From an uncultured Spartobacteria bacterium (GTDB taxonomy: Bacteria > Verrucomicrobiota > Verrucomicrobiia > Chthoniobacterales > Chthoniobacteraceae): DNA of 45,680 nt. The stretch spans positions 1 to 45,680 of the forward strand of contig CAIWVL010000257.1 in NCBI GenBank assembly GCA_903916085.1, read 5' to 3'. The position numbers were made by a program, and so were the translations under genes. The notes under the pieces are model-generated. The model was not told where the DNA came from and did not search any database. It saw only the letters and a list, made by a program, of their open reading frames with translations. Positions 11,819 to 36,953 of this stretch are shown here, piece by piece. Position 1 is the first letter of the stretch; each line of letters starts with the position of its first letter.

Positions 11819-11834
11819 AGAGGGTCAATGGGTT

Positions 11835-12947: not shown

Positions 12948-12950
12948 TGG

Positions 12951-16068: not shown

Positions 16069-16342
16069 ACCGTCTCGACGTTTCCACGGCGTGTGAATCT
16101 GGGGCATTAGCGAATCAAGCGCGCGCCCACGTAATACGCAAAGGTCATCCCCTGCCACTTGATGCTGTTGATCCCTTAAAAGCAACCCTTCGGACATCGA
16201 AATTCTCAAAGTCGCATATATTTTCAAGGCCCTTGAAACGGAGATAAGTACTCTTCGCGAAAGGAACAACAAGAGCATCGCGTGGATTGAGATTCTGAGT
16301 TGTGCTCCTTCTGAAAAAGCCGATTCGCGATTGATGTTTTAG
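16065..16342 (+). pseudogene. Frameshifted small gene of unknown family
   Basis: An ATG at 16065 overlaps the epimerase stop, as expected for a co-translated next gene. The first frame reads for about 37 codons to LPLDAVDPL; a shift near 16170-16180 moves the coding-like signal to a second frame (SNPSDIEILKVAYIFKALE ... SIAWIEILSCAPSEK) ending at a TAG at about 16342. The composition of the second part is protein-like. I do not recognise the family. It could equally be two chance frames. Confidence 0.4.
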
Positions 16343-16475
16343 CTTTTAGATTTTGGTCGCAATGAACGGTTCGTCGGAAAAGACAAACTTCATTTTTCTA
16401 CACCGAAAGACCCATTCGTAAAAATTTCAACCTTGAAATAGCCTTGTCCCGCCTGGCCAATCCTTACTTGCTAAC

Positions 16476-17255: not shown

Positions 17256-17277
17256 GTTTTTTCGCCACCTTAAAATC

Positions 17278-17802: not shown

Positions 17803-17821
17803 GGCACCCATTCTCCCACCC

Positions 17822-18589
17822 ATGGTTCACCGTATCTTTCCAGCCACGTCAGATTTCGAAAACCTTTCGAAGTTTAAGGTAGATTCGGCTGCGGAAGCCA
17901 ACACGTTTGACTATTCAGGGGTCGTTGTTCGGAAGCCGTGGGGTTATGAGTACCTTTGGTTCCAAAACTCCTCCATTTCAGCCTGGATACTTCATGTCAC
18001 GAATGGTTCGGCAACCTCTACGCATTGTCATAGCCGTAAGAGAACGTCCTTAATTGTAATGTCAGGCGAGGTGGTTTGTTCGACCATCGACAGCAGGCAT
18101 AGGCTCACGCCTGGAGACGCAGTAGTTCTCGAGCCCTGCGTCTTTCACTCCTCAATGGCCACCTCCGAGGGCGGTGCGTTCGTTATGGAAATTGAAACGC
18201 CACCATTGAAAGGCGATCTGGTCAGGCTTCGCGACCAGTTCGGTCGGGAGGGTAAAACCTATGAGAATGCCCGACACTACTCCACGGATTTAGACGAGTT
18301 TGACTACCAGCCCTTGGATCGACTGCAAACAGGAGAAAGTACTTTTGCTTTCAAAGAAATTCAGATGTGTCTAGGCACCTTCCGGACCGCAGCAGACATT
18401 GAAAGCAAGTTACTGCCCGGCGGCATCGCTGTCCCCCTTCTGGGCCGGCTTGTCTTTGGAAGAACCTTAATCGCCGACATCGGAGAAACGATACTGAGCG
18501 ATGAACTTCTTTCCAAGCCCTGCCCAGCGGCCTTCCCCCCAGTCGAACTCTTGCAGATGGTTCCTTTTCAAAAACTGACCAACAGATAA
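17822..18589 (+). CDS. Cupin-domain protein
   Basis: 255 residues with a clear cupin barrel at about 35-120. Metal-binding histidines are in STHCHSRKR and in the second motif (LTPGDAVVLEP, VFHSS). The opening RKPWGYEYLW is like the mannose-6-phosphate isomerase/cupin group that binds sugar phosphates. The C-terminal half looks like a second, less conserved domain. Probably a sugar isomerase or epimerase of the pathway. The next gene begins 7 bases after its stop. Confidence 0.75.
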   Translation: MVHRIFPATSDFENLSKFKVDSAAEANTFDYSGVVVRKPWGYEYLWFQNSSISAWILHVTNGSATSTHCHSRKRTSLIVMSGEVVCSTIDSRHRLTPGDAVVLEPCVFHSSMATSEGGAFVMEIETPPLKGDLVRLRDQFGREGKTYENARHYSTDLDEFDYQPLDRLQTGESTFAFKEIQMCLGTFRTAADIESKLLPGGIAVPLLGRLVFGRTLIADIGETILSDELLSKPCPAAFPPVELLQMVPFQKLTNR

Positions 18590-18596
18590 TCCCAGA

Positions 18597-20399
18597 ATGA
18601 AAGTTAGTGACTACATCACCAGTTTCCTATCAGGAAGAAACGCCCGACACATCTTTGCAATTTCGGGTGCGGGAAATGTCCACCTCCTCGACAGCATGAC
18701 AGCCGACCCTCGGCTGAAAATTGTCTGTAATCATCACGAGCAGGCTTCTGTGATGTCCGCTATCGCCTACGCAAGACTCAGTCCGTTCATCGGTGTTGCC
18801 TTAACCACTGGGGGGCCGGGCGCCATCAACGCTTTCAGCGGAGCATTGGATGCATGGGCGGATTCCATTCCTATCTTGATCATAAGCGGTCAGGAAAAAT
18901 CTGTTTTCACACGGAAGGAAAATCCTCTTCGCATGTGGGGAGTGCAGGGTTTCGACGTCCCACGCGCAGTGAGCGGGTTCACGAAATACGCCGTCACCAT
19001 TCTTGATCCTCTCTCCATCAAATACCATTTAGAGAAAGCGCTGTTTTTAGCATTCTCCGGGCGTCCAGGCCCCGTCTGGTTAGACATCCCGATGGACATT
19101 CAGTCGGCACAAGTCGATCCTGAAAAATTGGAGGGTTATCATGCCGAGCCGATGCCGCATACCGCCCAAAAAGGGGACGTCGAAAAGGTTTTGGAACTCC
19201 TCTCGAACTCCCAGCGCCCCGTCATCTTGTTGGGACACGGAGTGCGTTTGTCTGGCGCACTTGATCTCGTTCCCGCACTGCTCGAAAAATTTCCTACAGC
19301 TGTTCTAACTTCATGGGCCGCCGCCGATATGGTCTCAAGTGACTTTCCGAGATTTTTCGGCCATGCTGGAGTTTACGGACAGCGGTGCGCAAATTTTGTA
19401 CTCCAAAACAGCGATTTTTTCCTCTCGATTGGGTCACGCTTGGCCATCCCGCAAGTGGGGTATGTAGCGGATGAATTTGCGAGAGATGCAAAGAAAATCA
19501 TGGTGGACATCGACCCGACTGAGTTGGACAAACATTCGGAGTCCTTTGATCTGTGCGTCGAGTCCGATGCAGGCGATTTTATCAAGGAACTCATCTCCGC
19601 CTCTGAGCACACCACATTTCCCACGCCTCACTCTTGGCTCGCTCGCTGCGAGGAATGGAGGCGGAGTTACCCGCTCCTCGATCCTGAAATCCACGCGAGC
19701 CAACCTGGCTACGTAAATTCTTACGAGTTTATCGATTGCTTATCCAATCATTTTAACTCCGATGAGGTAGTGGTCACGGACATGGGAACGGCACTGACCT
19801 GCACGCACCAAGCGATCAAGTTGTCGGGCACGCAGCGCCTCGTTACTTCCACGGGAATGGGTGAGATGGGCTTCGGACTACCGGGAGCCATTGGCGCCTG
19901 TTTTGCGAATCCTGGTAAAAGGGTGATCTTGATTGTGGGCGACGGTTCATTTATGATGAATCTTCAGGAGCTACAAACTATCATTCATCACAAATTGCCG
20001 TTGAAGATCTTTTTGTACAGCAACGATGCCTACTTGACGATCAAGCACACACAAACAGCACTTTTCGAGGGCAGACTTGCGGCAAGCGACGCCGAAAGTG
20101 GAGTATCCTGTCCGAATTTCGAGAAAGTCGCGCTTGCATTCGGCTTTCGCGTTACGGAACTAAATTCCAGTGTCTCAATGGACGACGCAATTTCCAAAAC
20201 ACTCGAAGGGGAGGATCCCGTCCTCTGTAACATTCACATGCACCCCATGCAGCCGCTCGTCCCTAAAGTCTCCTTTACCATGAAGCATGACGGCAGCCTT
20301 CTTTCACCTCCTCTCGAGGATCTGTTTCCTTTTCTCCCACGAGAAACTCTGCGCCATGAAATGATGATTGGCATGCACCCTAAGAGCGAAAACCTATGA
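18597..20399 (+). CDS. ThDP-dependent acetolactate synthase-like enzyme
   Basis: 600 residues with the three-domain layout of the acetohydroxyacid synthase/pyruvate oxidase family: N-terminal pyrimidine-binding domain with catalytic Glu48 (NHHEQAS), a central Rossmann domain (about 190-330), and a C-terminal diphosphate-binding domain with the GDGSFMMNLQEL motif ending in YSND for magnesium-ThDP. Such enzymes decarboxylate a 2-keto acid and add the acyl carbanion to a second molecule. YerE, a relative in Yersinia, attaches a two-carbon branch to CDP-4-keto-3,6-dideoxyglucose, exactly the rfbFGH product; that role is plausible here but unproven. The gene overlaps the aldolase gene (ATGA). Confidence 0.85.
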   Translation: MKVSDYITSFLSGRNARHIFAISGAGNVHLLDSMTADPRLKIVCNHHEQASVMSAIAYARLSPFIGVALTTGGPGAINAFSGALDAWADSIPILIISGQEKSVFTRKENPLRMWGVQGFDVPRAVSGFTKYAVTILDPLSIKYHLEKALFLAFSGRPGPVWLDIPMDIQSAQVDPEKLEGYHAEPMPHTAQKGDVEKVLELLSNSQRPVILLGHGVRLSGALDLVPALLEKFPTAVLTSWAAADMVSSDFPRFFGHAGVYGQRCANFVLQNSDFFLSIGSRLAIPQVGYVADEFARDAKKIMVDIDPTELDKHSESFDLCVESDAGDFIKELISASEHTTFPTPHSWLARCEEWRRSYPLLDPEIHASQPGYVNSYEFIDCLSNHFNSDEVVVTDMGTALTCTHQAIKLSGTQRLVTSTGMGEMGFGLPGAIGACFANPGKRVILIVGDGSFMMNLQELQTIIHHKLPLKIFLYSNDAYLTIKHTQTALFEGRLAASDAESGVSCPNFEKVALAFGFRVTELNSSVSMDDAISKTLEGEDPVLCNIHMHPMQPLVPKVSFTMKHDGSLLSPPLEDLFPFLPRETLRHEMMIGMHPKSENL

Positions 20400-21160
20400 A
20401 AAGCGCACTTTTGTCCTCTCCTCACGCCCTCTTAGGTCCTCTCATCCGGATTCCCCGTGCCGAGATTGTGGAACTTCTCGCTCTTGGTGGCTTTGACTTT
20501 GGGGTCGTGGATTTGGAGCACGGCCCGATCGGACACCATGAAGTTTACCCAATGCTTCTAGCGGCTGAGCGTCGAAATTTTCCTCTTTTAGCGCGCATCC
20601 CCGGTCTTCAGGAGAGCTATGTAAAGTGGCTTTTAGATATTGGTATTTCTGGTCTGCAAATCCCTCACATCAAAACGGCAGATGATGCAAGGGCGGCTGT
20701 CGCAATGAGCAAATTTGCTCCAGAAGGTGAACGCGGATTGTGTCGTTTTACAAGGGCAGCCGGTTTTTCAGACACACCGCGCGATGAATACGTTCGAACG
20801 GCCAATGAAAGGTGTATTCTCGTGCTTCAAATCGAAGGCAAAGAAGGAGTCGATAACATTGAAGAGATTTGCAGCGTCCCGGGGATTGACATCATTTTTG
20901 TGGGTCCGTACGACTTGAGCCAATCGTTGGGTTTGATTGGACAAATCTGGCATGAGAAGGTAGTGGAAAAGGTAACCCACGTCGTGCAGACCTGTGCCGC
21001 CGCAGGTATTCGCACAGGCGTTTTCACAGACAGCCCAGAGGGACTGGCTCACTGGCACAAACTAGGCATCCACTACCTGAACTACCGGATTGAGGTAGAG
21101 ATTTTCTTGTCTGGTATCCGGCAATGCGTCGCCGATGCCAAAAAAGCGATTGTACGATAA
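20396..21160 (+). CDS. HpcH/HpaI-family aldolase
   Basis: 254 residues of the pyruvate-dependent class II aldolase family (2-dehydro-3-deoxyglucarate or 2,4-dihydroxyhept-2-enedioate aldolase type). Visible marks: FGVVDLEHGPIG, LARIPG with catalytic arginine, GISGLQIPHIKT, GLCRFTRAAGF, VLQIEGKEGVDNI (metal-binding Glu) and DIIFVGPYDLSQSLG (metal-binding Asp). Joins or cleaves pyruvate and an aldehyde. ATG overlaps the preceding stop and its TAA overlaps the following ATG, so translation is coupled. Confidence 0.88.
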   Translation: MKSALLSSPHALLGPLIRIPRAEIVELLALGGFDFGVVDLEHGPIGHHEVYPMLLAAERRNFPLLARIPGLQESYVKWLLDIGISGLQIPHIKTADDARAAVAMSKFAPEGERGLCRFTRAAGFSDTPRDEYVRTANERCILVLQIEGKEGVDNIEEICSVPGIDIIFVGPYDLSQSLGLIGQIWHEKVVEKVTHVVQTCAAAGIRTGVFTDSPEGLAHWHKLGIHYLNYRIEVEIFLSGIRQCVADAKKAIVR

Positions 21161-22197
21161 TGCACCAAATCTCTAGGCAAACCCTCTCAAATTGGATCTT
21201 CGATGCGCTGGTCTCCTCGGGGGTTACCGCTCCCGACGCCCAGACTGTATCTGACTCGCTAGTCCAGACGAGCCTCTGGGGCATTGACTCCCACGGCGTA
21301 GCACGGATTACGCACTACCTCGAGCGTCTACGTACGGGTTCTATTTGCGCCGCTCCACAACTCCAATTCCAGAAGACCGGAGCAGCCACCGGGAATTTGG
21401 ACGGCGGCCATGGACTCGGGTTTGTCGTATGCCATCGTGCGATGCAAGAGGCCATCGCTCTCGCGAAAGACTCGGGCGCTGGAGTCGTCGGCGTGAGAAA
21501 CTCGAGTCATTGCGGGGCGATTGGACTCTACACTCGGCAGGCAAGCCAAGAAGACTTGATCGGGATTGCGTTCACGCATTCGGATTCGTTCGTCGTTCCT
21601 CATTTGGGAAGGCAGGCGTTTTTCGGTACAAACCCGATTTCCATTGCTATCCCCTCCAAGGATCCCGAGCGGCCGCTCTGTTTAGACATGGCGACCAGCA
21701 ATGTTCCCTGGAATCTTATTATGAATGCCCGGCGCGAGAACCGGCCCGTTGCGCCAGGACTTGGCGTGGATAAAGAGGGAAATGATACAACGGACCCCCA
21801 CGCCGTCGTTGCATTGAAACCGATGGCGGGCCATAAAGGCTACGCCATGGCGTTCCTGATAGACATGCTTTGCGGTCCCCTCAATGGCATGGCCTTCGGG
21901 CCAGGGCTCACCAAGATGTACTCGCAGCTTGATGAGCACCGACGACTCGGTTCCTTAATGATAGCCATCGATCCAGCACGATTTGCGGGTGGGATTAATT
22001 TAGCCGCGGTCGTGACCGAGGCCATTTCCGGAATGACTGAGCTTGGAGACCAAGTCCTGTACCCTGGCCAGCCGGAATATGAATCCGCTGAAAAAAGGAA
22101 GGTTTCGGGAATTCCCGTGGAACCAAACTTGATGAAATCATTTCAAGAGTGGTCAGCAAAGCTTGGCATTTCTTGCCCGTCTGAAGGTGCCCAATGA
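21160..22197 (+). CDS. Ldh-family (malate/lactate type) dehydrogenase
   Basis: 345 residues of the NAD(P)-dependent 2-hydroxyacid dehydrogenase family that includes sulfolactate, ureidoglycolate and ComC-type enzymes. Conserved marks: GIDSHGVAR (catalytic His), GHGLGFVV, NSSHCGAIG, FGTNPISIAIP, LDMATS and GHKGYAMAFLID. Would reduce a 2-keto acid, a natural partner for the aldolase upstream. I chose the ATG at 21160 overlapping the aldolase TAA rather than an upstream in-frame start at 21124 that lies inside the aldolase gene. Confidence 0.88.
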   Translation: MHQISRQTLSNWIFDALVSSGVTAPDAQTVSDSLVQTSLWGIDSHGVARITHYLERLRTGSICAAPQLQFQKTGAATGNLDGGHGLGFVVCHRAMQEAIALAKDSGAGVVGVRNSSHCGAIGLYTRQASQEDLIGIAFTHSDSFVVPHLGRQAFFGTNPISIAIPSKDPERPLCLDMATSNVPWNLIMNARRENRPVAPGLGVDKEGNDTTDPHAVVALKPMAGHKGYAMAFLIDMLCGPLNGMAFGPGLTKMYSQLDEHRRLGSLMIAIDPARFAGGINLAAVVTEAISGMTELGDQVLYPGQPEYESAEKRKVSGIPVEPNLMKSFQEWSAKLGISCPSEGAQ

Positions 22198-22841
22198 TCA
22201 AAGCCTTTTTGTTTGATTTCGATGGCGTCGTCGCAGACTCCCCCCACCTCAATTTTCGCTCTTGGCAGCAGGCGTTTTCGGAGCAGGCGCTAGCGATCTC
22301 TGAGCTGGAGTATTTCCGCATGGAAGGAATGGGACCCCGAGGTATAGCAAAGCATTTTTGTCTTCAAAATGGGATCGACCCTTTGCGTGATGAGGAGTTT
22401 GTCGTCCGGAAGGAAGCATTCATGGTGTCCCTCGGAAACCCTTCGATTTATGAAGGCATCTACAGTTTGCTTAAATCTCTTAACTCGCAAGGAATAAAAC
22501 TAGCGCTGGTGACGGGAGCCTCAAAACAGAGGATCACGAGAAGTTTGCCGGAAACACTGGCTCTTCTTTTTGACGCTATCGTAACGAGTGATGACGTCAC
22601 TCATACAAAGCCTCATCCCGAGCCCTATTTGAACGCGGCGGACGCTCTCGGCATCACGCCTGAGGAAGCGGTTGTGATAGAGAATGCACCCCTTGGGATA
22701 GAAGCAGCAAAGAAAGGCGGCTTCTTCTGTATCGCTATCACGACGACTTTGCCGGTCTCAGAACTACAATCAGCTGATGAAGTTGTTTTAAACCATGCGA
22801 CCCTCGCAGAAGCAGTTTTCCGACAGGCGAGGAGTGCTTAG
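22194..22841 (+). CDS. HAD-superfamily phosphatase/phosphoglucomutase-like
   Basis: 215 residues of the HAD subfamily IA, with the nucleophile and acid Asp8/Asp10 in FLFDFDGVVADS, motif II threonine (LALVTGAS), motif III lysine (TKPHPEPYL) and motif IV (VVIENAPLGIEAA). The ENAPxGIxAA form is typical of beta-phosphoglucomutases and sugar phosphatases. Its start overlaps the Ldh stop (ATGA). Probably removes a phosphate from a pathway intermediate before or after activation. The operon ends here, 3 bases from the convergent ketoisomerase gene. Confidence 0.88.
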   Translation: MIKAFLFDFDGVVADSPHLNFRSWQQAFSEQALAISELEYFRMEGMGPRGIAKHFCLQNGIDPLRDEEFVVRKEAFMVSLGNPSIYEGIYSLLKSLNSQGIKLALVTGASKQRITRSLPETLALLFDAIVTSDDVTHTKPHPEPYLNAADALGITPEEAVVIENAPLGIEAAKKGGFFCIAITTTLPVSELQSADEVVLNHATLAEAVFRQARSA

Positions 22842-22844
22842 ATT

Positions 22845-23420
22845 TTAGGGCACCTCGGCATAGCGAGGCATTTCGAGAGGTGCGTCAGTTTGAGAGTGAG
22901 CGTGTTTCCGAAAGCGTGGCTCGGCATTGGGCATGACTGGCGATCTGGAGAAAACGGCTGAGCGTAGGAAGGCAGATCCCGGCATTCTGAGAAGTCCGTC
23001 TTTGGCCTCCTTCGCGGCGCGGATGAACTCGTCGTAGTCGCGGTAGTAGTCCGCCTCGTCGTAGAGATTGGAGGCCAGCACCATGCACACCGCGCCGGAC
23101 GAGAAGTTGTCGATCTCGCGCCAGATCATCGGGCACACATAAAGGCCATGATACGAGCGATTCAGGTGGCTGCGCTTCTTTTCAATGCCGTCGTCGAGGA
23201 CGATGTCAAAACTGCCTGACATGGCGATGATGAGCTGGTGCAGCTCCTTGTGCGCGTGGCCGCCGCGCTGTGAGCCGCCGGGCACGTCGTAGAGGTAATA
23301 GACGCGCTTGATGTCAAAAGGGATGTGCCCCTTGCCGTCCGGACCTTCGATGAAGGTGAGATTTCCCCGAGGATCACGGATGACGGGCAGATCGACCAAA
23401 TGAAAACGCTCGATGTTCAT
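22845..23420 (-). CDS. FdtA/QdtA-type sugar 3,4-ketoisomerase, long tail
   Basis: The first 140 residues are a cupin-type dTDP-4-keto-6-deoxyglucose 3,4-ketoisomerase: [35 protein letters not shown] with active-site His residues, and [18 protein letters not shown]. The product feeds a 3-aminotransferase to make Fuc3N or Qui3N. Compared with the 140-residue paralogue at 35425-35847, this copy has about 50 extra C-terminal residues rich in Arg and Pro (from GLLRMPGSAF) that look like read-through of non-native sequence. Start is ATG 23420 (MNIERF); the upstream 27 codons overlap the divergent neighbour's leader. Fdt or Qdt specificity cannot be decided. Confidence 0.85.
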   Translation of the reverse strand: MNIERFHLVDLPVIRDPRGNLTFIEGPDGKGHIPFDIKRVYYLYDVPGGSQRGGHAHKELHQLIIAMSGSFDIVLDDGIEKKRSHLNRSYHGLYVCPMIWREIDNFSSGAVCMVLASNLYDEADYYRDYDEFIRAAKEAKDGLLRMPGSAFLRSAVFSRSPVMPNAEPRFRKHAHSQTDAPLEMPRYAEVP

Positions 23421-23485
23421 GGTGTTCGAAGGTTTTGAAGAGGAAGAGGTTGCAGCCGCGATACCGTGCGTCCTATCTTGACGGT

Positions 23486-24166
23486 ATGAATTCGATCTCA
23501 CCCCTGGCCCACATTGATCCCACCGCGAAACTGGGGGAAGGCATTGTCATCGAGGCGGGGGCTTGGGTAGGGCCGGGAACAGAAATCGGCGACAAAACCA
23601 TCGTGCAGGCAAATGCGGTGGTCGGTCGCGGACATGTGCCAGGCAGCAATGGACCCACGATCCTCGGGCGTGACTGCATCATTGCCAGCGGCGTGGTGGT
23701 TTATCACGACGTGATGCTGCATGACGGAGCCAAAGTGTGGCACAACGCGGTGATCATGCGGCATGTGACGATCGGTGCGGGCACTTCGATCGGAGTGCAT
23801 ACCTGCATCGTGAACGACGTCATCATCGGGCGCGACTGCTCGATCCACGGTCACTGCCAGGTTGGCGACTTTTCCCAGATCGGTGACTTTGTCTTCATCG
23901 GTCCCGGTTTCCTGTCGGTGAGTGATCACAACATGGTTTTCCGTCGTCCGCAGCTCACAAAGCATTTCCAGGGCATCATCGTGCATGACAAGGCGCGCAT
24001 CGGGGGGCGTGTGTTAGCTCTTCCTGGCAGTGTGGTGGGCGAAGAGGCAGTCGTGGGCGCGGGAAGTGTCATCAAAGGTGAATTGGTCGCACGAGTTATC
24101 TATATGGGCGATCCGATCCGCCCGGTCCGCAAAGTGAAGCCCGAGGAATTTCTGCCCGATTCGTGA
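23486..24166 (+). CDS. Left-handed beta-helix acyltransferase (LpxA-like)
   Basis: About 226 residues made of hexapeptide repeats ([LIV]GxxxxI pattern: LGEGIVIEAGAWVGPGTEIG, VTIGAGTSIGVHTCI, IIGRDCSIHG, IGDFVFIG), forming a left-handed beta helix that usually transfers an acyl group from CoA or ACP to an amino sugar. HNAVIMRH may hold the catalytic histidine. Starts at ATG 23486; an upstream in-frame start at 23435 would run into the divergent gene's leader. It lies next to a ketoisomerase for 3-amino sugars and faces an operon with its own acyl carrier protein, so it may N-acylate that sugar (inference). Confidence 0.82.
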   Translation: MNSISPLAHIDPTAKLGEGIVIEAGAWVGPGTEIGDKTIVQANAVVGRGHVPGSNGPTILGRDCIIASGVVVYHDVMLHDGAKVWHNAVIMRHVTIGAGTSIGVHTCIVNDVIIGRDCSIHGHCQVGDFSQIGDFVFIGPGFLSVSDHNMVFRRPQLTKHFQGIIVHDKARIGGRVLALPGSVVGEEAVVGAGSVIKGELVARVIYMGDPIRPVRKVKPEEFLPDS

Positions 24167-24183: not shown

Positions 24184-26730
24184 TCAAAACGGCCCTCCGA
24201 TGGAAATCCAGCGCACCATGCGGTCCATCGGCCACATGCCGTCCCACGGTGAGTCAAAATAGGTCATGCGGCCGATGTCCGGGAAGCGCTCAGCGCCGAG
24301 GGAGCTGGCGCGTTTCGCGAACGCCAGCTTGCGAGCGCCATCCATCGCCAAACCGACAGTCTGGATGCCTTTGTGAGCGAATTCAGCCGCCTGACGCACA
24401 TCATCGACCGCACGCACGGTGATGACGCGCGAGTAACAAGGCTCCGCCAGTCCGCGATCCGCCTCTTCGTCGTAAAGCACAGTCCAGCCTGTGCCCTGGG
24501 AGCGCCACAGCTCGCCGCTGAGCTCATAGCGCATGCGAATGGCCTCCACCTTGGCCGCGGTGCCCGCATCGACGGGTGCTTTGGGAATGCGGACGATGGC
24601 GCGTGCCATCTCGCCAGCCAGCATCTTGGCAAACTCCTGTGGAGAGGCCGCCGCGCCGCCTTTTTCGACAAAGATCGTGTGTGGCGACGCGCAGGCGTAT
24701 TGATCGAACACGGACGCGTCTGTGGCCGCATTGCGTGCCAGCCTCCGCGTGCCGCGCTCGGTGGCGAGCCCCTCGCGGCCGATGACCATGTAGGAGAGCT
24801 TGGGGCCAAAGATGATGTCCTCAGTGCCGTAGCGTTTCGGTAGATTGAGAATGGACTCGATGGCCTCACGCCCGCCCCAGGCCAGACGCACGTCCGCCGC
24901 CTGCGAAAGAGCGGTGGCGCTCGCGTGGTCGTCACGCGAGAAGTAGATCACAGCGATGGAGGCGAGGATGTCATCTCCGCAAATTTTACGACCTGCGTGT
25001 GTGATGATCTCAAGGCCACGGAAGGTCTCCAGCAATGCAGGAAGCACGGCTGCGAACGAACTGGGCGCTTTGAGGATGTTGGCGTTGCGCGTGAGGATCG
25101 CCTGCGCCACGCCGAGCATGCCTAGCAAAGGGACATTGCCAGCGAGCCAGTGCGCCACCAGCCCGCGCGGCTGCGCCATGACGAGGCGGCGGTTGATGCC
25201 ATCCACAGGACAAAACGCATCCAGGTGGCCGCGCCCCCCCGCGAGCGAGCGGTCGGCAGTTTGCCGCATGGCGGAAGATTGGCACCAACCGGCGAGGAAT
25301 TGCAGACCGATGTGGCGCAGCGGAGTCAGCGGACTGTCAGGTTCCATCCACCTACGTGCGGCGGCTCCGATTAATGCGGCGAGTTCGTCCACGGAATAGG
25401 CTTCGAGCTTCTCACGGGCGCAACGCAGGCGGCCACAGAGCGCGTCGAGATCGCCCGCATCCGGCAGGGCGGACAAATTAACCGGGAGAAGCAGATCCGG
25501 GCTGGAATACCTGCCTGCTCCATCAAACAGCAGGCGCGGACGTGAGGGTGCGCTGACGGCACTCGCCGCCGCCGCACTGTCGCGTGGCGATGCGGCCATT
25601 TTTTCGCCCATGATGTCGCCGCAGCCGCGCACCTCGGCTTTCTTGGCGCGGCCGATCACGCGGAAGTGGGTGCCTTGCTTATCACGGCGGGTGATCACGC
25701 CGAGATCGTCCGTCAGCACCGCCAGTCCGGGATACGAGTGTGGCAGCGGCGTCACAAACTCCAGAAGGCCCTCCATGCCGTCGGGCGCGGGTTCCAGCGT
25801 CTCAGGGTGCCTCACGATCACCTCGGCGAAGACAGGTGTGCATTTCTCGCCAGGGGAGAGATCGGGATAGGTGACGCCCATTTGCTCCGTGAAGCCGTAA
25901 AAGTCATGCACGTCAGCGGCCTCGACGCCGAACACCTCCTTCACACCCGCGTCAAAAACTGCGCGGGAGACACTTTGGTCCGCCAGCTTCTTCCAGCCGC
26001 CGATGTGCACCACCTTGGAGCCGGACGGCAGCGGAAAACGTACGCCTTTTTGAAGCAGCGGCGCGATCACATGGGCATAGAGCACAAAAGTAAAGCCAAA
26101 GACGACGACGGGATCGCCCGTGGCAGCGCAGTCAGACAACGCGGCGGCCAGTTCGTCCTCCCGCAACCCCAATCGACCACCAGGCAGCCCGTTCATCACA
26201 TAACGGGCCTCGCGTGCGAGATTGAGAAAGCCACGGACCGCCGCGCCGCGCGCGCCGACGGCCTCAATGCTGGCCGTGCGTGGATCGACATCCACCACGA
26301 TGAATGGTCGGCGCTTGGGGCCTAGAACAGCTGACATCACAGACGCCAGTGCTCGGACCTGACGTTTCGCGGTGATTTTGTCGATGAGCACCGTGCTTGC
26401 CACACCACTCGTGGCAGAGGAGCGCAGGCGCGTTTGGATTTGCGCGTCCTCGACGGAGCGCAGCAGCTCGCCGTTGTCTTTAAAGGCGTGTACGGGCAGG
26501 AAGGGCAGATCCTCGATCTTCTCAAAGACATGCTCCGCGCCGATGTCACGCCGCGTGCAAAAACGGCGGTAAGCCGGGCAGGAGTGCCAATGATGGCGGA
26601 ACTCCTCGTTGAGCGCCTTTAAGAGCGCATCACGTTTGTCCGGCTGCGAAACGGCGAATGGCGGCAGCGCCACCAATTCGTCGAACGACGCGCTGTTGGA
26701 CATCAGGCTGCTGGATTCGTCAGATGGCAT
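24184..26730 (-). CDS. LuxE-LuxC fusion (acyl-protein synthetase/acyl reductase)
   Basis: 848 residues. The N-terminal 370 match LuxE acyl-protein synthetases (SCPAYRRF; DLPFLPVHAFK; SSATSGVAST, the adenylate loop; DFYGFTEQMGVTYPD). A low-complexity Ala/Ser linker follows at about 370-400. The C-terminal 440 match LuxC, the NADPH-dependent acyl reductase of aldehyde-dehydrogenase type, with GLVAHWLAGNVPLLG and catalytic Cys680 in FDQYACASPHT. In bioluminescent bacteria the two are separate and reduce fatty acid to aldehyde; luxAB genes are absent, so light production is unlikely. Start overlaps the Fe-ADH gene end by 11 bases. Lies last in an ACP-ligase-ADH-LuxEC operon. Confidence 0.88.
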   Translation of the reverse strand: MPSDESSSLMSNSASFDELVALPPFAVSQPDKRDALLKALNEEFRHHWHSCPAYRRFCTRRDIGAEHVFEKIEDLPFLPVHAFKDNGELLRSVEDAQIQTRLRSSATSGVASTVLIDKITAKRQVRALASVMSAVLGPKRRPFIVVDVDPRTASIEAVGARGAAVRGFLNLAREARYVMNGLPGGRLGLREDELAAALSDCAATGDPVVVFGFTFVLYAHVIAPLLQKGVRFPLPSGSKVVHIGGWKKLADQSVSRAVFDAGVKEVFGVEAADVHDFYGFTEQMGVTYPDLSPGEKCTPVFAEVIVRHPETLEPAPDGMEGLLEFVTPLPHSYPGLAVLTDDLGVITRRDKQGTHFRVIGRAKKAEVRGCGDIMGEKMAASPRDSAAAASAVSAPSRPRLLFDGAGRYSSPDLLLPVNLSALPDAGDLDALCGRLRCAREKLEAYSVDELAALIGAAARRWMEPDSPLTPLRHIGLQFLAGWCQSSAMRQTADRSLAGGRGHLDAFCPVDGINRRLVMAQPRGLVAHWLAGNVPLLGMLGVAQAILTRNANILKAPSSFAAVLPALLETFRGLEIITHAGRKICGDDILASIAVIYFSRDDHASATALSQAADVRLAWGGREAIESILNLPKRYGTEDIIFGPKLSYMVIGREGLATERGTRRLARNAATDASVFDQYACASPHTIFVEKGGAAASPQEFAKMLAGEMARAIVRIPKAPVDAGTAAKVEAIRMRYELSGELWRSQGTGWTVLYDEEADRGLAEPCYSRVITVRAVDDVRQAAEFAHKGIQTVGLAMDGARKLAFAKRASSLGAERFPDIGRMTYFDSPWDGMWPMDRMVRWISIGGPF

Positions 26731-27871
26731 CGTTTAAAATGAGTTCCACGAGTTCGGGGGTCACAAGCACGGGATTCGCGGTGGCACAAATGTCCGCCAG
26801 CGCACCCTCGGTGATCGCAGGCAGCTCTTTTTTCAACGCGACGACCCCACCGCGTGCTTCGGCTCCCAGTTTGCCGATTCCGACGGAATCGGCGAGGCTG
26901 CGCACGGCAGAGACGAGGCCGTCCGCATCGTGCAAACCGAGTCGTAGCGCCAGTTTATCGAAAGAGGCCCTTGTCGCCGCATCAGAGCTGTTGATCTTGA
27001 TGGACGATGCCAGCAGCGCACCGCAGGCGACGCCGTGCGGCACGGCGAAGGCACCCATCTGGTGCGCGATCGCGTGACCAATGCCGGGAACTTTCAAATT
27101 TTGCACCCAGCCTGCCATGGTGGCCGCGAGCTGCACTTCGAGCACACCCTCCAGATTTGCACGATCATTAATGACGCTGGGAAGATGCTCAAAAAGCGTC
27201 GCCGCGGCTGAAATGGCGAAATGATCGGCCATCGGGTTTTTGAAGCGCGAAACAAAGCTCTCCACCGCATGCGCCAGCGCGTCCAATCCGGCGGCAGCCA
27301 TCGCGCGGGCGGGCACGTCGGCCAAAAGCTCAGGATCGAGAATCACGAGGTCAGGTAGCAACTGATGCGATACGACGGCTTGCTTCCTCTGCGAGCCGGG
27401 AAGGCTCAAAACGGCGGCGGAACTGACTTCCGATCCCGTTCCGGCTGTCGTCGGCAACGCGGCGAGGCGGGCTTTGCCACGCAGGTCTGGAAGGGTAAAA
27501 GGACGTGCCAGGCGCTCCAGATCAGCGTCTGGCTGCTCATAGAAAATCCAGATGAGCTTTGCCGCGTCGAGCACCGAACCGCCACCGACGGCCACCAGCC
27601 AGTCGGGCCGGAAGTCGGTCACCTCGGCCACGGCGGTCCGCAGGCTTTCCAGTGTGGGCTCACCCGAGGGCAGGGTGATGACACGCAGATCAAGCGTGCC
27701 GACACAGCGGCGCAGCCTTTCCATCAAGTGGCTGTTGGCCGCGATGGAGGGGGATATGAGAAGGGCGGCACGTGCAGCACCCAAAGCACGCAGAGCAGCG
27801 ATGGAACCCTTGCCCATGAGCAACTCGCCAGCGGTCAGAAACCGGGGGATGGGCAGTCGAAGTTTAAGCAT
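26720..27871 (-). CDS. Iron-containing alcohol dehydrogenase
   Basis: 383 residues of the group III, metal-dependent alcohol dehydrogenase family. NAD(P)-binding GGGSVLDAAK, PTTAGTGSEVS, and the iron ligands in DALAHAVESF (Asp/His) and GHAIAHQMGAF...PHG (two His) are visible. I place the start at ATG 27871 (MLKLRLPIPRF); the long upstream open frame lies inside the ligase gene. It overlaps that gene by 8 bases. It would interconvert an aldehyde and alcohol, and stands next to the LuxC reductase that makes aldehydes. Confidence 0.9.
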   Translation of the reverse strand: MLKLRLPIPRFLTAGELLMGKGSIAALRALGAARAALLISPSIAANSHLMERLRRCVGTLDLRVITLPSGEPTLESLRTAVAEVTDFRPDWLVAVGGGSVLDAAKLIWIFYEQPDADLERLARPFTLPDLRGKARLAALPTTAGTGSEVSSAAVLSLPGSQRKQAVVSHQLLPDLVILDPELLADVPARAMAAAGLDALAHAVESFVSRFKNPMADHFAISAAATLFEHLPSVINDRANLEGVLEVQLAATMAGWVQNLKVPGIGHAIAHQMGAFAVPHGVACGALLASSIKINSSDAATRASFDKLALRLGLHDADGLVSAVRSLADSVGIGKLGAEARGGVVALKKELPAITEGALADICATANPVLVTPELVELILNDAI

Positions 27872-29393
27872 GGTCTTCGAGGGTGAGTTCTTTGATAAGC
27901 ACGCTGCGCTGAATCTTGCCGCTGTCTGTGCGCGGGATTTTGGCGACCTGCACAAAGCGCGTGGGCACTTTGAATCTCTCCAATTGCAGCAGGCATTCGG
28001 TTTCAATGGTGGCGAAGTCCGGTGGCACCGATTGATCGGCCACGATGGCTGCGACGACGACTTCGCCATCCGGCTCCGGAACGCCTGCGACAGCGACATC
28101 CAGCACACCAGGGAACCTGCTCAGAACACGCTCGACTTCGGACGGATTGACCTTGTAGCCACCGACGTTGATCACGTCCTTCAAGCGGCCCGTGATAAAC
28201 AAATAGCCTTCTTTGTCCAGATGACCAAGATCGCCCGTGTGAAGCCAACCATCCCGTAAAAGCAGGCGGGTTTCCTTCTCGTTTTCCCAGTAGCCTGATG
28301 TCACAGCCGGTCCATGAATGACAACCTCGCCCGTTTCACCTGCATCGAGTGTTTCGCCAGCCCCGGACTTGATGGCCAGCCGCGTCGTGCCCAGACTGCG
28401 GCCCACGGAGCGATAATACTCCGGCCCCTGGCGTGTCAGCGAGATAAAAGTCGAGCGTGAGGCCTCGGTGAGTCCGTAGTAGACCATGATGTCGAGGTCG
28501 GGCAGCAAAGCCTGCAACTGCGCCGCACGCTCCGGCGGCAGCGGAGCTGAATTGATCACCGAGAACCGGAGTTTGCTGCCTCGTTTCGCCAAAATCGGCC
28601 CATACCGATCCATCAGCATGCCAAAGCCTGCAGGTGTGCCGGGAAAGCCTGTGGCCTCAAAGCTTTCCACATTCTCCAGCACGCGTCCGACACGCGTGAG
28701 GCCGCTTTCGGTGTACACCGCGCCGCCATTGAGAAGATTGCAGTAAAGATGGCCGAGTCCGAAGTTATGAGACAGCGGCAGCGTCACCACTTCGCGGTCA
28801 TCCGGTCCATATCCGACGAAATTGCAGATGTTGCGCAGCGCCTGCATCACATTGGCGTGCGTGAGGCGCACGCCTTTGGGCTGACCGGTGGTGCCGGTCG
28901 TGTACATGAGCACCGCGAGGCTGTCCGGCGTGATTTGATCGGTGAAGACGCCCGCATGCCCGAGGGACGATACTTCCTGCGCGAAGAGGGCGTCAGGTGT
29001 CTCATCAAAGGAGATGACTTTTTCGATGCCAGCCTCGCGTGCCACGGAGCCAAGCCGCTGCGCGGAAGCGGCATTTGTCAGCAAAAAACGCGGACGGCAG
29101 TTGGCCGCCATGCTGGCGAAGGATTCGGGGGCGACGCTGGCGTCAAAAGGTACGCTAACTGCTCCGGCCATCAGGTTGGCGAAATGAGCGGTGACAAATA
29201 GAATGCCGTTTGGCAACACGACGACACTGCGGTCGCCCGTTTTCAAACCCAAATGTCTCAAGCCACCTGCTAGTTCCCCAGCCTGCGTCGCGAGCAACTC
29301 ATAACTGACTGAGCCATGAATATCCTGCACCGCCAGACGCCCGGCATGGGCGTCGGCACCACTGGTCAGGATTTGCGGCAGCAATTCGATCAT
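27864..29393 (-). CDS. Adenylate-forming acyl ligase (ANL family)
   Basis: 509 residues. The AMP-binding loop is TTGTTGQPKG at 165-174, followed by YYGLTEAS (core motif), GWLHTGDLG and the hinge/lysine region TDSGKIQRSVL near the C-terminus. Class I enzymes activate a carboxylic acid as acyl-AMP and transfer it to CoA or to the phosphopantetheine of a carrier protein. The ACP gene 17 bases upstream is the likely partner. The acid itself cannot be predicted by eye. Confidence 0.92.
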   Translation of the reverse strand: MIELLPQILTSGADAHAGRLAVQDIHGSVSYELLATQAGELAGGLRHLGLKTGDRSVVVLPNGILFVTAHFANLMAGAVSVPFDASVAPESFASMAANCRPRFLLTNAASAQRLGSVAREAGIEKVISFDETPDALFAQEVSSLGHAGVFTDQITPDSLAVLMYTTGTTGQPKGVRLTHANVMQALRNICNFVGYGPDDREVVTLPLSHNFGLGHLYCNLLNGGAVYTESGLTRVGRVLENVESFEATGFPGTPAGFGMLMDRYGPILAKRGSKLRFSVINSAPLPPERAAQLQALLPDLDIMVYYGLTEASRSTFISLTRQGPEYYRSVGRSLGTTRLAIKSGAGETLDAGETGEVVIHGPAVTSGYWENEKETRLLLRDGWLHTGDLGHLDKEGYLFITGRLKDVINVGGYKVNPSEVERVLSRFPGVLDVAVAGVPEPDGEVVVAAIVADQSVPPDFATIETECLLQLERFKVPTRFVQVAKIPRTDSGKIQRSVLIKELTLEDHA

Positions 29394-29410
29394 CGAACGA
29401 GGCGAGTTCT

Positions 29411-29656
29411 TCAGGCCTGTGCGCCGCCTTGGGTGTATTTTTTCACCATGTCCACAATGTCGCCGACTGATTCGATGTCGATGGAGTCCACCACGTCAAA
29501 AGCGAAACCAAAATGCTTCTCCACCGCCATCAGCACATTCACATGCCCGAGAGAGTCCCACTGTGGGATGTCTCCGGCGGCGAGGTCTTCGGAGCAGTCT
29601 TCGGGTCGGATTTTCAAGGTCGTGCAGACGATGTTTTTGATCGTGTCTTCAATCAT
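29411..29656 (-). CDS. Acyl carrier protein
   Basis: 81 residues, acidic. The phosphopantetheine attachment serine is S35 in WDSLGHVNVLMAVE, the hallmark of ACP/PCP domains, with an acidic helix and IVCTTLKIRPEDC start. It is distinct from the fatty acid synthase ACP in sequence and sits in an operon with a ligase, so it is a dedicated carrier. It overlaps the methyltransferase fragment by 8 bases. Confidence 0.93.
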   Translation of the reverse strand: MIEDTIKNIVCTTLKIRPEDCSEDLAAGDIPQWDSLGHVNVLMAVEKHFGFAFDVVDSIDIESVGDIVDMVKKYTQGGAQA

Positions 29657-30331: not shown

Positions 30332-30595
30332 TTAATCCGAGAACACTTTCTCGTAGTCCGGCATGGGATCACTCGCATAGTACGGCGAGTCTTCCTGCTG
30401 TGCCAGTTTAGCGTTCGGTGGCGCACGCGAGGGCGCAACCCATGGCGTGCCACACCAAAGCCCCTTGTGTCGGAGAATCTTTTCGATCACCCCCGCTTGC
30501 TCGATCACTGCAATGACCCGCATCCGGTTTTGGCTGTGCGGACATTGCAGCAGATCGGTGTGCCATACCTTCAGGATCACATCCCGCCATTTCCT
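30332..30595 (-). mobile_element. IS91-family transposase C-terminal relic
   Basis: The minus-strand frame reads VWHTDLLQCPH, NRMRVIAVIEQAGVIEKILR and then PMPDYEKVFSD to a stop. This is the typical end of IS91-like rolling-circle transposases (DPLxCPxCGxxMRVIAFI, IEKILRHLG, DYxxPFPD). The zinc-binding cysteines are partly lost (CPHSQN for CPxCG). No N-terminal part is present; upstream it abuts the IS5-type relic near 30595. Confidence 0.7.
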
Positions 30596-31170
30596 TTGTG
30601 AGCAATTTTGACCAAACGCTCTCGAACGCGATCGCACAAGCGCGTATCCGTAGGAAAGCGAATCGCTTTGGTTTACACAGTGGTATCCACGTTCACATCG
30701 GCAAAGTCCGAAGGCTTGATGGCTTTCATTTTAAGGCCCGTTTTTAATGTTGCGCGAAGCATTGCCTCCGCTCCGTTGTCTCCTAAACGCGAGCGCCAAC
30801 GGGGCATGCTCGACGGATCGATGGGAGCTTTGTGGGAAAAGAACTGCATCCCGCTAAAAAACTGCCAGTAAGAATTTTCCACCCAGCGCGACACGACTTC
30901 TTCGTCGCTCAAATCGCACTGATACTTCACATAATGAAGCGAAACCATCAGTCGGGTATTGATGCCTGCGGCTCCAGTGGCAGGGGCATAGGTTGGATCA
31001 AGTTGATGATCAAACTGCTCACAAGAGATCTAAGCCGGAACCTTTACCAATGGATGAGTCAAGCTGATGATGGAAGCCAGTTCGATTTTAAAGAAATCAG
31101 GTTGGGCGGAGGGTGGTGTTGCTTTGGGCTTAATCGAAATTCCCAGTTTTTGAGCGCTTTGGAACCCATT
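30596..31170 (-). mobile_element. IS5-type transposase relic, right copy
   Basis: The minus-strand frame runs QPDFFKIELASIISLTHPL, then a TAG (31032-31030), FDHQLDPTYAPATG, INTRLMVSLHYVKYQCDLSD, VENSYWQFFSGMQFF, PIDPSSMPRWRSRLG and VNVDTTV, then a TAA (30675-30673), and continues in the same frame as TKAIRFPTDTRL to VKIAHK. This is the N-terminal and first catalytic region (VDTTV) of an IS5-family DDE transposase, inactivated by two in-frame stops and truncated at about 30596. It mirrors the relic at 13955-14175 in opposite orientation. Confidence 0.85.
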
Positions 31171-31250
31171 TGAACGGCAAAACTGATGCCAAAACATAGG
31201 TATAATCACTTTAACAGCAGAGTTTTGTGTGCCTTTTCAGCGCCGACTAC

Positions 31251-31373
31251 CTACCGCACAGGGATTAAAGTATCTGTCCGTTGAGGGCCCCGATTCCTTG
31301 TTGTCATCGGTCGCTCGGTAATGAGTGGGCAGATGGCTTCCCACAGTTCATCGCTCACCAATGGATGTTTCAT
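31251..31373 (-). mobile_element. DUF4096-type IS5 transposase, N-terminal relic
   Basis: An ATG at 31373 opens MKHPLVSDELWEAICPLI then GPQRTDT and LIPVR to a TAG at 31251. This resembles the beginning of IS427-group transposases (LVSDELWEAIEPLLP, GRPR). Everything after 41 codons is lost. It is a different element from the larger relic beside it. Confidence 0.6.
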
Positions 31374-31568
31374 CCTGAAACCCAATCCATTCCGCTCATT
31401 TTTCCAGTTTTTTAGGCTCTCTTAATGCTCTATCTCAAGACGGACAGCCTCTCCTTCCGACTGAGGTTCACCCTCGCGGGATACATCGGAGACGGACTTC
31501 CAAAAACGGTGCGCGCACTGCCGTGCAGCATGGGTACGCGCAAACCATCACTGGCCGACACTCCGCTA

Positions 31569-35424: not shown

Positions 35425-35847
35425 ATGAGTATCGAAAAATGCAGCATAATTGAATTACCCGCTATCCACGATCCCAGAGGGAACCTTACATTTATTGAAG
35501 GACCCGATGGCAAAGGACACATACCTTTCACCATCAAAAGAATCTATTATCTCTACGACGTACCAGGCGGGGCTGAGCGGGGCGGGCATGCTCACAAGAA
35601 TTTACACCAGTTGATTATCGCGATGTCTGGAAGTTTTGACATTGTAATCGACGATGGCTTCAACAAGAAGCGGATCCATCTAAATCGCTCATACAAAGGC
35701 CTCTACGTCTGCCCGATGATCTGGCGGGAAATAGACAACTTTTCCTCGGGCGCAGTCTGCATGGCGTTGGCATCCAACCTTTACGACGAAGATGATTACT
35801 ACCGTAATTACCAGGATTTTAGTGCCGTCGTTCACCAGAAGCTATGA
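35425..35847 (+). CDS. FdtA/QdtA-type sugar 3,4-ketoisomerase
   Basis: 140 residues, the normal family length. Single cupin with [35 protein letters not shown] (active-site His) and [18 protein letters not shown]. It moves the keto group of dTDP-4-keto-6-deoxyglucose from C4 to C3. Its stop overlaps the aminotransferase ATG (ATGA), the usual arrangement for Fuc3N or Qui3N synthesis. It is a close paralogue of the protein from 22845-23420, with the same residues through most of its length. No dTDP-glucose synthesis genes are in the window. Confidence 0.92.
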
Positions 35848-36953
35848 AAGTCCCATTCCTAGAGCTATTACCCACTTACCTTGAACTTAAAGACGAATTT
35901 GATACCGCCTACAAAAGAGTAATGGCGTCGGGCTGGTACGTGTTAGGCAAAGAGCTAGAAGCATTCGAGCTGGAGTTTGCTAATTACTGCGGAACCAAGC
36001 ACTGTATTGGTGTCGGCAATGGCCTTGATGCACTGCACATCATTCTGCGAGCCATGAACATCGGCCGAGGCGACGAGGTGATAGTTCCCTCAAATACCTA
36101 CATTGCAACGTGGCTCGCTGTCTCGCACGCGGGGGCAACTCCGATACCAGTAGAACCCGACGAGCGTACGTTCAATATAGACACTGAACGCATTGAGGCC
36201 GCCATTACTGAACGCACAAAAGCGATCATAGCAGTTCATCTTTACGGTCAAACAGCTGATATGGATCAGATCAATCACATAGCGAGTAAGTATGGACTGA
36301 GAGTAATTGAAGACGCAGCCCAGTCACAGGGAGCCCGCTACAAAGGCATCAGGTCAGGTTGCTTGGGCCATGCTGCGGGACATAGCTTTTATCCGGGAAA
36401 AAATCTTGGCGCATTCGGTGATGCTGGTGCAATTACTACGAATGACGACGAACTAGCAGATAGAATTTCTCAGCTGAGAAACTATGGGTCCAAAGTTAAG
36501 TACCGTCACGACTTCAAGGGTTTCAACTCACGTTTAGACGAAATACAAGCAGCGTTCTTGAGAGTCAAACTCGCACGACTTGATGAATGGAATAAGCGTC
36601 GCGGACAAATCGCAGCGGAATATCTCTCCGCTTGTAGCACTCTCCGAGGAATCACCCTACCTTATGTTCCACCTTGGGCGGATCCGGTCTGGCATTTGTT
36701 TGTGATCAAGCATCCTCAGCGCGAGAAGCTTCAATCTTTGCTGCTGGAATCAGGAATCGGCACGCTCATCCACTACCCGTATCCGGCGCACCGCTCCGGC
36801 GCTTACGAGGGCGAAGAAGACCTTTACGACTCCCTACCGACAGCGTTAAACCTTGCCTCCACCGTGCTGAGCCTCCCGATAGGTCCACATTTGTCGTCCG
36901 AGCAAGTCGGCGCTGTGTTACATTGCCTCGAAACCTCCCTTTGCAAGATTTAA
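35844..36953 (+). CDS. Sugar 3-aminotransferase (DegT/DnrJ/EryC1)
   Basis: 369 residues, PLP-dependent. The PLP lysine is K186 in [13 protein letters not shown], with [10 protein letters not shown] and [11 protein letters not shown] as cofactor-binding segments. Partnered with the 3,4-ketoisomerase by a 4-base overlap, it most likely aminates the C3 keto sugar to a dTDP-3-amino-3,6-dideoxyhexose (FdtB/QdtB role). The acyltransferase that would complete the pathway could be the hexapeptide protein at 23486-24166. Confidence 0.92.

What the first reader, a model, noticed from the sequence alone, without database searches (positions are those of the whole stretch)
24184..29656. LuxE-LuxC fusion with its own ACP, ligase and Fe-ADH inside a polysaccharide locus
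The minus-strand operon ACP, adenylate ligase, Fe-alcohol dehydrogenase and LuxE-LuxC fusion has overlapping or closely spaced genes, and no luxAB. Family chemistry gives acid activation, loading on a carrier, reduction to an aldehyde by the Cys680 domain and possibly reduction to an alcohol. Placed between a hexapeptide acyltransferase and a methyltransferase remnant, it could make an unusual acyl- or alcohol-derived decoration of a surface glycan. Motifs are seen directly; the pathway is inference.
Basis: partly seen in the sequence, partly recalled or inferred. Interest (0 to 1): 0.8.

Follow-up and report, generated by a model that had tools for sequence, protein, structure and literature searches.

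The report
Hydroxyacyl-making cassette for surface sugars
Four linked genes in a bacterial surface-sugar locus match, gene for gene, a cassette known from the cholera bacterium's O1 antigen that is thought to reduce one end of a small di-acid (malate) and hang the resulting hydroxy-acid on an amino sugar; this is a new, distant and widely travelled member of a known system rather than a new one.

Summary
Minus-strand ACP (29411-29656), adenylating ligase (27864-29393), Fe-alcohol dehydrogenase (26720-27871) and an 848-aa LuxE-LuxC fusion (24184-26730) form a tight operon with intact catalytic residues, in a locus for deoxy- and amino-sugars. Searches found 80 named loci with the LuxE-LuxC protein (nearly all as one fused chain) in Verrucomicrobiota, Pseudomonadota, Bacteroidota, Bacillota, Spirochaetota and others: 77 also hold the ligase, 68 the ACP, 49 the Fe-ADH. 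Of 65 loci with at least 12 kb of DNA, 54 have glycan genes nearby. The four genes co-inherit, while the neighbouring sugar genes do not. The same gene order is published for Vibrio cholerae O1 (VC0248-VC0252, rfbKLMNO/wbe), assigned to tetronate made from malate and N-linked to perosamine. So the best reading is a tetronate-type cassette: LuxE-LuxC and Fe-ADH reduce one carboxyl of a dicarboxylate, the ligase loads the hydroxy-acid on the ACP, and a hexapeptide acyltransferase transfers it to an amino sugar. The substrate is inferred and no O1 sequence was available to align. New member of a known kind. Most unusual side finding: a Bacteroidales-dominated clade where Fe-ADH is replaced by a split transketolase or SDR genes.

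The parts
29411..29656 (-). acyl carrier protein (81 aa), Ser35 in DSL motif; probable RfbK/WbeK counterpart
   Evidence: PP-binding 6.5e-6; S35 100% conserved in 67 homologues
27864..29393 (-). AMP-forming acid ligase (ANL family, 509 aa), both half-reaction motifs incl. K493; probable RfbL/WbeL counterpart
   Evidence: AMP-binding 3e-71 + C-terminal domain; K493 100% in 75 homologues; WbeL is 471 aa
26720..27871 (-). Fe-containing alcohol dehydrogenase (383 aa); probable counterpart of VC0250
   Evidence: Fe-ADH + ADH_Fe_C; start fixed by alignment; expected metal ligands conserved; nearest solved relatives AdhE ADH domains
24184..26730 (-). LuxE-LuxC fusion (848 aa): acyl-protein synthetase + acyl-thioester reductase; probable RfbN counterpart. 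Start at 26730 or 26703
   Evidence: Pfam; 7xc6 chains E and A by sequence; 7xc6_A top structural match of the model; C370 and C680 invariant
23435..24166 (+). hexapeptide (left-handed beta-helix) acyltransferase, QdtC-like; candidate transferase of the ACP-bound acyl group (convergent, 17 nt from the LuxEC stop)
   Evidence: Hexapep 7e-25; best PDB hit QdtC 2e-18; hexapeptide genes flank the cassette in about nine other loci
22845..23501 (-). FdtA-like dTDP-4-keto-6-deoxyhexose 3,4-ketoisomerase
   Evidence: FdtA 6e-55
35425..35847 (+). second FdtA-like ketoisomerase
   Evidence: FdtA 1.6e-56
35844..36953 (+). DegT-family sugar aminotransferase (FdtB-like): likely source of the 3-amino-3,6-dideoxyhexose to be acylated
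   Evidence: DegT 1.4e-115; about 50% identical to the DegT next to cassettes L043 and L061
29649..30071 (-). 140-aa ORF overlapping the ACP start; unassigned, possibly a truncated methyltransferase
   Evidence: no Pfam hit; 8-nt overlap
30332..31400 (-). decayed IS5-type transposase remnant upstream of the operon
   Evidence: PF05598 1.9e-12 at 30673-30948; broken reading frames

Best explanation
A tetronate-type N-acyl cassette, homologous in gene content and order to Vibrio cholerae O1 rfbKLMNO (VC0248-VC0252). The LuxE domain activates one carboxyl of a small dicarboxylic acid (best candidate malate) as acyl-AMP and holds it on Cys370. It passes to Cys680 of the fused LuxC domain and is reduced with NAD(P)H to a semialdehyde. 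The Fe-ADH reduces the semialdehyde to a hydroxy-acid (malate would give 2,4-dihydroxybutyrate, i.e. 3-deoxy-tetronate). The ANL ligase activates the remaining carboxyl and loads it on the small ACP. A neighbouring hexapeptide acyltransferase moves the hydroxyacyl group to the amino group of a sugar, here probably a 3-amino-3,6-dideoxyhexose of the surface polysaccharide. Shown: gene content, order, intact catalytic residues, co-inheritance, glycan context. Inferred from families and the V. cholerae precedent: each reaction, the direction and the sugar. Least certain: the substrate.
For: Same four genes in the same order in G256 and G424, and recurring in 80 named loci across many phyla. Catalytic residues invariant. 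Inheritance of ligase, Fe-ADH and ACP correlates with LuxEC (Spearman 0.75, 0.64, 0.87, Mantel p 0.001), DegT neighbours do not (-0.09), so the four are one unit. Glycan context: 54 of 65 long loci; DegT 11/18 against about 0.3 expected. Published V. [quoted passage not shown] VC0248-VC0252 assigned to tetronate (PMC3441752); RfbN has a LuxE domain (PMC4772473); tetronate comes from malate (PMC10746206); the wbeL deletion loses O1 antigen. Malate dehydrogenase above its curated cut-off lies directly or one gene downstream of LuxEC in L083 and L074. Marinomonas L043 has FdtA-ACP-ligase-FeADH-LuxEC-hexapeptide-DegT in a row, the sugar modules the window also has. Acyltransferases (hexapeptide or GNAT) flank other cassettes. 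N-linked hydroxybutanoyl groups are known on such amino sugars (PMC8074265).
Against: No V. cholerae O1 sequence was available: 228 Vibrio genomes were searched and none could be recognised as O1, so homology to RfbN rests on published annotation and gene order. The V. cholerae pathway itself was proposed from sequence. Some cassettes have no recognised glycan gene nearby (L032, Magnetococcales L050/L053/L054/L105). In the Bacteroidales-dominated clade without Fe-ADH the chemistry must differ. Substrate specificity cannot be read from the sequence; the malate dehydrogenase link rests on two loci. The window hexapeptide gene is convergent, not in the operon. The upstream region is damaged by a transposase remnant, so expression is unproven.
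Confidence: 0.65

Rival explanations
1. The cassette makes an alcohol (or aldehyde) that is itself attached to the glycan: ligase loads a monocarboxylic acid on the ACP, LuxEC reduces the ACP thioester to an aldehyde, Fe-ADH to an alcohol.
For: Fits all enzyme families; Deinococcus carries ACP-SDR-ligase-LuxE-LuxC-acetyltransferase in a polysaccharide locus.
Against: Leaves the LuxE activation domain redundant with the ligase although its ATP-binding motif and Cys are fully conserved; acyltransferases, not alcohol-transfer enzymes, flank the cassettes; the V. cholerae precedent ends in an N-acyl group.
Confidence: 0.15
2. A fatty-acid/lipid tailoring set giving a 'liposugar', as proposed for the flagellin glycosylation islands of Aeromonas and enterobacteria, or a fatty alcohol/wax pathway.
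For: The authors of PMC4875605 and PMC7874193 read ACP, FabG, ligase, LuxE and LuxC in glycosylation islands this way; LuxC-LuxE in luminescent bacteria reduces long fatty acids.
Against: LuxE and LuxC equivalog models score 92 bits against cut-offs of 550 and 750; the cassette keeps company with amino-sugar and nonulosonic-acid genes; no wax-synthase gene was recognised among the neighbours that were annotated.
Confidence: 0.08
3. In this window the LuxEC aldehyde feeds carbon-branching of the CDP-dideoxysugar (aldehyde to the HpaI-type aldolase, then to the YerE-like ThDP enzyme).
For: A YerE/JanthE-like enzyme and an HpaI-type aldolase lie 3-6 kb away; ErwE uses 4-hydroxy-2-oxo acids (PMC12247030), the class of product HpaI-type aldolases make; some related cassettes carry a transketolase pair instead of Fe-ADH.
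Against: The YerE-like set was not seen beside the other cassettes; it is on the other strand with lower G+C (0.50-0.55 against 0.59-0.63 for most of the operon); Fe-ADH would remove the aldehyde.
Confidence: 0.05
4. The operon is a horizontally acquired relic that is not expressed.
For: The transposase remnant and truncated ORF sit immediately upstream; the genus is otherwise without it (0 of 11 genomes).
Against: All four frames are open and every catalytic residue is kept; an ORF in the same direction reads into the ACP start.
Confidence: 0.07

Closest known systems
Vibrio cholerae O1 rfbKLMNO / wbe tetronate genes (VC0248-VC0252)
   Same: Ligase, Fe-ADH, LuxE-LuxC-type protein (RfbN) in the same order, with an acetyltransferase after them, inside an O-antigen locus with amino-sugar genes.
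   Different: Here the host is a verrucomicrobial MAG, the sugar genes are of the 3-amino-3,6-dideoxyhexose and CDP-3,6-dideoxyhexose types instead of perosamine, and the hexapeptide acyltransferase is convergent and QdtC-like. Sequence identity to the V. cholerae proteins could not be measured.
Aeromonas group II and enterobacterial flagellin glycosylation islands: ACP, FabG-type reductase, AMP ligase, LuxE, LuxC
   Same: ACP, ligase, LuxE and LuxC together in a glycan locus; a Deinococcus example of this layout is homologous part by part (29-35% for ACP, ligase, LuxE; 24% for LuxC).
   Different: An SDR instead of Fe-ADH; LuxE and LuxC as separate proteins.
lux operon fatty acid reductase LuxC-LuxE (7xc6)
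   Same: Both folds, both catalytic cysteines, thioester reduction chemistry.
   Different: Fused; far below the LuxC and LuxE equivalog cut-offs; no luxAB or luxD seen in the window; own ACP, ligase and Fe-ADH.
QdtA/QdtB/QdtC and FdtA/FdtB/FdtC (dTDP-Qui3NAc / Fuc3NAc) pathways
   Same: FdtA-type isomerases, DegT aminotransferase and QdtC-like hexapeptide acyltransferase are in the window.
   Different: Acetyl-CoA is the donor there; here a dedicated acyl-ACP supply is proposed.

Membership tests
V. cholerae O1 tetronate (rfbKLMNO) cassette | ligase - Fe-ADH - LuxE/LuxC protein in this order, preceded by a carrier protein | tested here: met
   Window order against the published VC0249-VC0252 list. 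That VC0248 is a carrier protein was recalled, not read.
V. cholerae O1 tetronate (rfbKLMNO) cassette | sequence homology of each protein to RfbK, RfbL, RfbM, RfbN | not testable with these tools
   No V. cholerae O1 locus in the collections searched.
V. cholerae O1 tetronate (rfbKLMNO) cassette | acyltransferase and amino-sugar genes alongside | tested here: met
   Hexapeptide acyltransferase 17 nt away, FdtA-like x2, DegT.
V. cholerae O1 tetronate (rfbKLMNO) cassette | product 3-deoxy-tetronyl N-linked to the sugar | not testable with these tools
   Needs chemistry; no structure of this glycan is known.
Bioluminescence LuxC/LuxE fatty acid reductase | score above NCBIfam equivalog cut-offs (LuxE 550, LuxC 750) | tested here: not met
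   92.5 and 92.1 bits.
Bioluminescence LuxC/LuxE fatty acid reductase | catalytic Cys in both domains | tested here: met
   C370 and C680, 100% in 75 sequences.
Bioluminescence LuxC/LuxE fatty acid reductase | luxAB alongside | tested here: not met
   No luciferase among the window ORFs annotated; the rest of the genome was not scanned for it.
Flagellin-island ACP/FabG/ligase/LuxE/LuxC set | SDR reductase and separate LuxE and LuxC | tested here: not met
   Fe-ADH and a fused protein here; the ACP, ligase, LuxE and LuxC parts are homologous to the Deinococcus example.

The most novel reading that the evidence does not exclude
The ACP-ligase-LuxEC core is a general, mobile 'reduce one end of a small acid' module for surface glycans whose aldehyde-consuming partner is exchangeable: Fe-ADH gives hydroxyacyl groups, while the Bacteroidales-dominated clade with a split transketolase and/or SDR makes a different, undescribed acyl or ketol group; and the window couples the hydroxyacyl group to a 3-amino-3,6-dideoxyhexose next to a C-branched CDP-dideoxysugar, a combination with no described structure.
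Probability: 0.3. Interest if true: 0.55.

Novelty: new member of a known kind. Interest (0 to 1): 0.38.

Why it matters
It shows that a cassette published for one cholera serogroup is an old, mobile module present in the surface-sugar loci of at least six phyla, including gut Bacteroidales and Lachnospiraceae. That gives a chemical prediction (hydroxyacyl amides made from small dicarboxylates) for many uncharacterised glycans. It also suggests that the LuxE/LuxC genes in Aeromonas and enterobacterial flagellin islands, so far read as fatty-acid genes, may instead make short hydroxyacyl groups.

Tried and rejected
Free-standing fatty-acid/wax reading: rejected on equivalog scores and neighbourhood. 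Alaninol-type alcohol decoration: no paper in the library joins alaninol with O-antigen. Direct comparison with V. cholerae RfbN: no O1 locus could be recognised in 228 Vibrio genomes, and Morona 1995 is not held. The ligase's nearest solved relatives (oxalate-CoA, FadD-type, malonyl-CoA ligases) do not fix its substrate. Distant LuxE/LuxC hits in most relatives of the host (25-35% identity) are other LuxE/LuxC proteins and were not pursued, apart from the loci around G059, G325, G113 and G052. Plasmid LuxE-LuxC pairs of Pantoea, Lactiplantibacillus, Azospirillum and Priestia lie with SDR and (in two) ABC-transporter genes and no recognised glycan genes, a different branch. The profile self-comparison was uninformative. 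A tool-made ORF list hid LuxEC in L031 behind a longer antisense frame; this was corrected with stop-to-stop frames. The structure model (mean pLDDT 83) supports the LuxC fold (7xc6_A top match) but adds nothing on the substrate.
Full report
WHAT IS THERE. The window is one contig (G000:C257) of a 3.7 Mb draft genome. G424, from the same class, has the match on a contig of the same length (124,087 bases) as that of Cerasicoccus arenae, so the host is most likely a verrucomicrobial bacterium (inference). On the minus strand four genes follow each other: ACP 29411-29656, AMP-forming ligase 27864-29393, Fe-ADH 26720-27871 and LuxE-LuxC fusion 24184-26730. Gaps are +17, -8 and -11 nt. Relatives show that the Fe-ADH starts at 27871. 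The LuxE half aligns to 7xc6 chain E and the LuxC half to chain A; the two cysteines are C370 and C680. They and the ligase lysine, the ACP serine and the expected Fe-ADH metal ligands are kept in 98-100% of homologues. An AlphaFold model (pLDDT 83) has LuxC 7xc6_A as its first structural match.

NEIGHBOURHOOD. Within the window lie glucose-1-phosphate cytidylyltransferase, CDP-glucose 4,6-dehydratase and RfbH, all over NCBIfam cut-offs, a YerE-like ThDP enzyme closest to JanthE, 8rph, two FdtA-like isomerases, a DegT aminotransferase, a QdtC-like hexapeptide acyltransferase and a GT2. This is a locus for deoxy- and amino-sugars of a surface polysaccharide. Upstream of the operon are a truncated ORF and a decayed transposase. 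The operon's G+C is 0.59-0.63 except for the ACP (0.53), against 0.50-0.55 for the opposite-strand operon beside it. None of 11 same-genus genomes has it, and in 388 genomes of the phylum only two others carry a close full-length fused copy. It is sporadic and probably horizontally acquired.

HOW WIDESPREAD. One scan of 84,980 named genomes with an alignment of three fused proteins returned 80 loci, the cap; 74 gave near-full-length fused LuxEC rows for the tree. They lie in Verrucomicrobiota, Pseudomonadota, Bacteroidota, Bacillota, Spirochaetota, Nitrospirota and others. Of the 80, 77 hold the ligase, 68 the ACP and 49 the Fe-ADH; several of the rest are cut by contig ends. Typical order is ACP-ligase-FeADH-LuxEC. 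Of 65 loci with at least 12 kb of DNA, 54 hold a recognisable glycan gene and 40 hold two kinds or more. As a control, DegT genes occur about 0.75 per Mb in 18 of these genomes (59 strong matches in about 78 Mb), so about 0.3 of 18 windows should contain one; 11 do. The seeds for the glycan labels came partly from these same loci, which is why the DegT control was made. Distances between LuxEC sequences correlate with those of the ligase (0.75), Fe-ADH (0.64) and ACP (0.87), not with the neighbouring DegT (-0.09) and only weakly with hexapeptide genes (0.29). The four genes travel together and are plugged into different sugar loci: legionaminic-type (NeuB, NeuC), bacillosamine-type (PglC, D, E, F) and FdtA/DegT-type.

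WHAT IT IS. After following the data I recalled that V. cholerae O1 has such a set, then tested this in the papers held. [quoted passage not shown] VC0248-VC0252 are assigned to tetronate biosynthesis, and deletion of wbeL (VC0249, 471 aa) removes O1 antigen (PMC3441752). [quoted passage not shown] Tetronate is stated to come from malate (PMC10746206). Gene content and order match the window. The match by sequence could not be tested because no O1 locus was recognised in the collections.

HOW IT PROBABLY WORKS. The pathway needs two acid activations, which the window has: LuxE for the carboxyl to be reduced and the ANL ligase for the carboxyl to be transferred. Malate reduced at C4 by LuxEC and Fe-ADH is 2,4-dihydroxybutyrate, i.e. 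3-deoxy-tetronate (established chemistry; the enzyme assignment is my inference). Ligase and ACP make the acyl-ACP, and the hexapeptide protein is the likely transferase. Independent hints: a malate dehydrogenase gene sits directly downstream of LuxEC in L083 and one gene further in L074, both above the curated cut-off. In Marinomonas L043 FdtA, the cassette, a hexapeptide acyltransferase and DegT form one run. GNAT or hexapeptide acyltransferases flank other cassettes. Hydroxybutanoyl amides on amino sugars, including 4-hydroxybutanoyl on a 3-amino-3,6-dideoxyglucose, are known (PMC8074265). Succinate to 4-hydroxybutyrate would be an equally simple substrate choice.

LIMITS. Eleven of the 65 long loci have no recognised glycan gene (L032, Magnetococcales and others); the detection used a limited seed set. 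In a Bacteroidales-dominated clade Fe-ADH is missing and a split transketolase pair and/or SDR and KAS III genes stand in the operon. There the aldehyde must go elsewhere. Expression in the window is unproven.

VERDICT. The system is a member of a known kind, found far from its described host. Novel parts are its reach and the partner swap.

Noticed in passing
window 18597-21160 (+), with 10037-13736 (-): YerE-like ThDP enzyme (588 bits to JanthE 8rph, canonical GDG motif) followed directly by an HpaI-type aldolase, in a locus with RfbF/RfbG/RfbH: looks like synthesis of a C-branched CDP-3,6-dideoxyhexose (yersiniose/erwiniose type), with the aldolase possibly making the 4-hydroxy-2-oxo acid donor.
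   Followed up: partly
L056, L062, L068, L070, L074, L078, L079, L081, L083, L084, L087, L089, L093, L097, L098, L102, L107: Bacteroidales-dominated LuxEC clade where Fe-ADH is replaced by a split transketolase pair (about 277 + 319 aa), often with KAS III and SDR genes, right before ACP-ligase-LuxEC; product unknown.
   Followed up: partly
L026, L035-L037, L041, L059, L060, L067, L073, L079, L083, L086, L098, L101: A methylmalonyl-CoA-epimerase-like VOC protein recurs next to the cassette, hinting at an epimerisable alpha carbon in the acyl thioester or aldehyde.
   Followed up: no
L072:12444-13481 and relatives in L040, L041, L044, L052, L069, L071, L086, L092, L109: A conserved protein of about 345 aa with no Pfam match and no PDB relative found by sequence sits directly beside the cassette (usually just after LuxEC) and next to a polysaccharide deacetylase in legionaminic-type loci.
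   Followed up: partly
L112, L113, L114, L123: LuxE-LuxC-SDR operons on Pantoea, Lactiplantibacillus, Azospirillum and Priestia plasmids, two of them with an ABC transporter and none in a recognised glycan setting: possible acid-to-alcohol detoxification or uptake systems.
   Followed up: no
window 15004-22841 (+): An operon-like run of epimerase, second cytidylyltransferase-like protein, DJ-1/PfpI, cupin, ThDP enzyme, aldolase, Ldh_2 dehydrogenase and HAD phosphatase, of lower G+C than its surroundings.
   Followed up: partly
phage record MT835565.1, 11743-14096: An unannotated phage-labelled record from human faeces encodes a distant LuxE-LuxC relative (23.6% identity over 86% of the query).
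   Followed up: no
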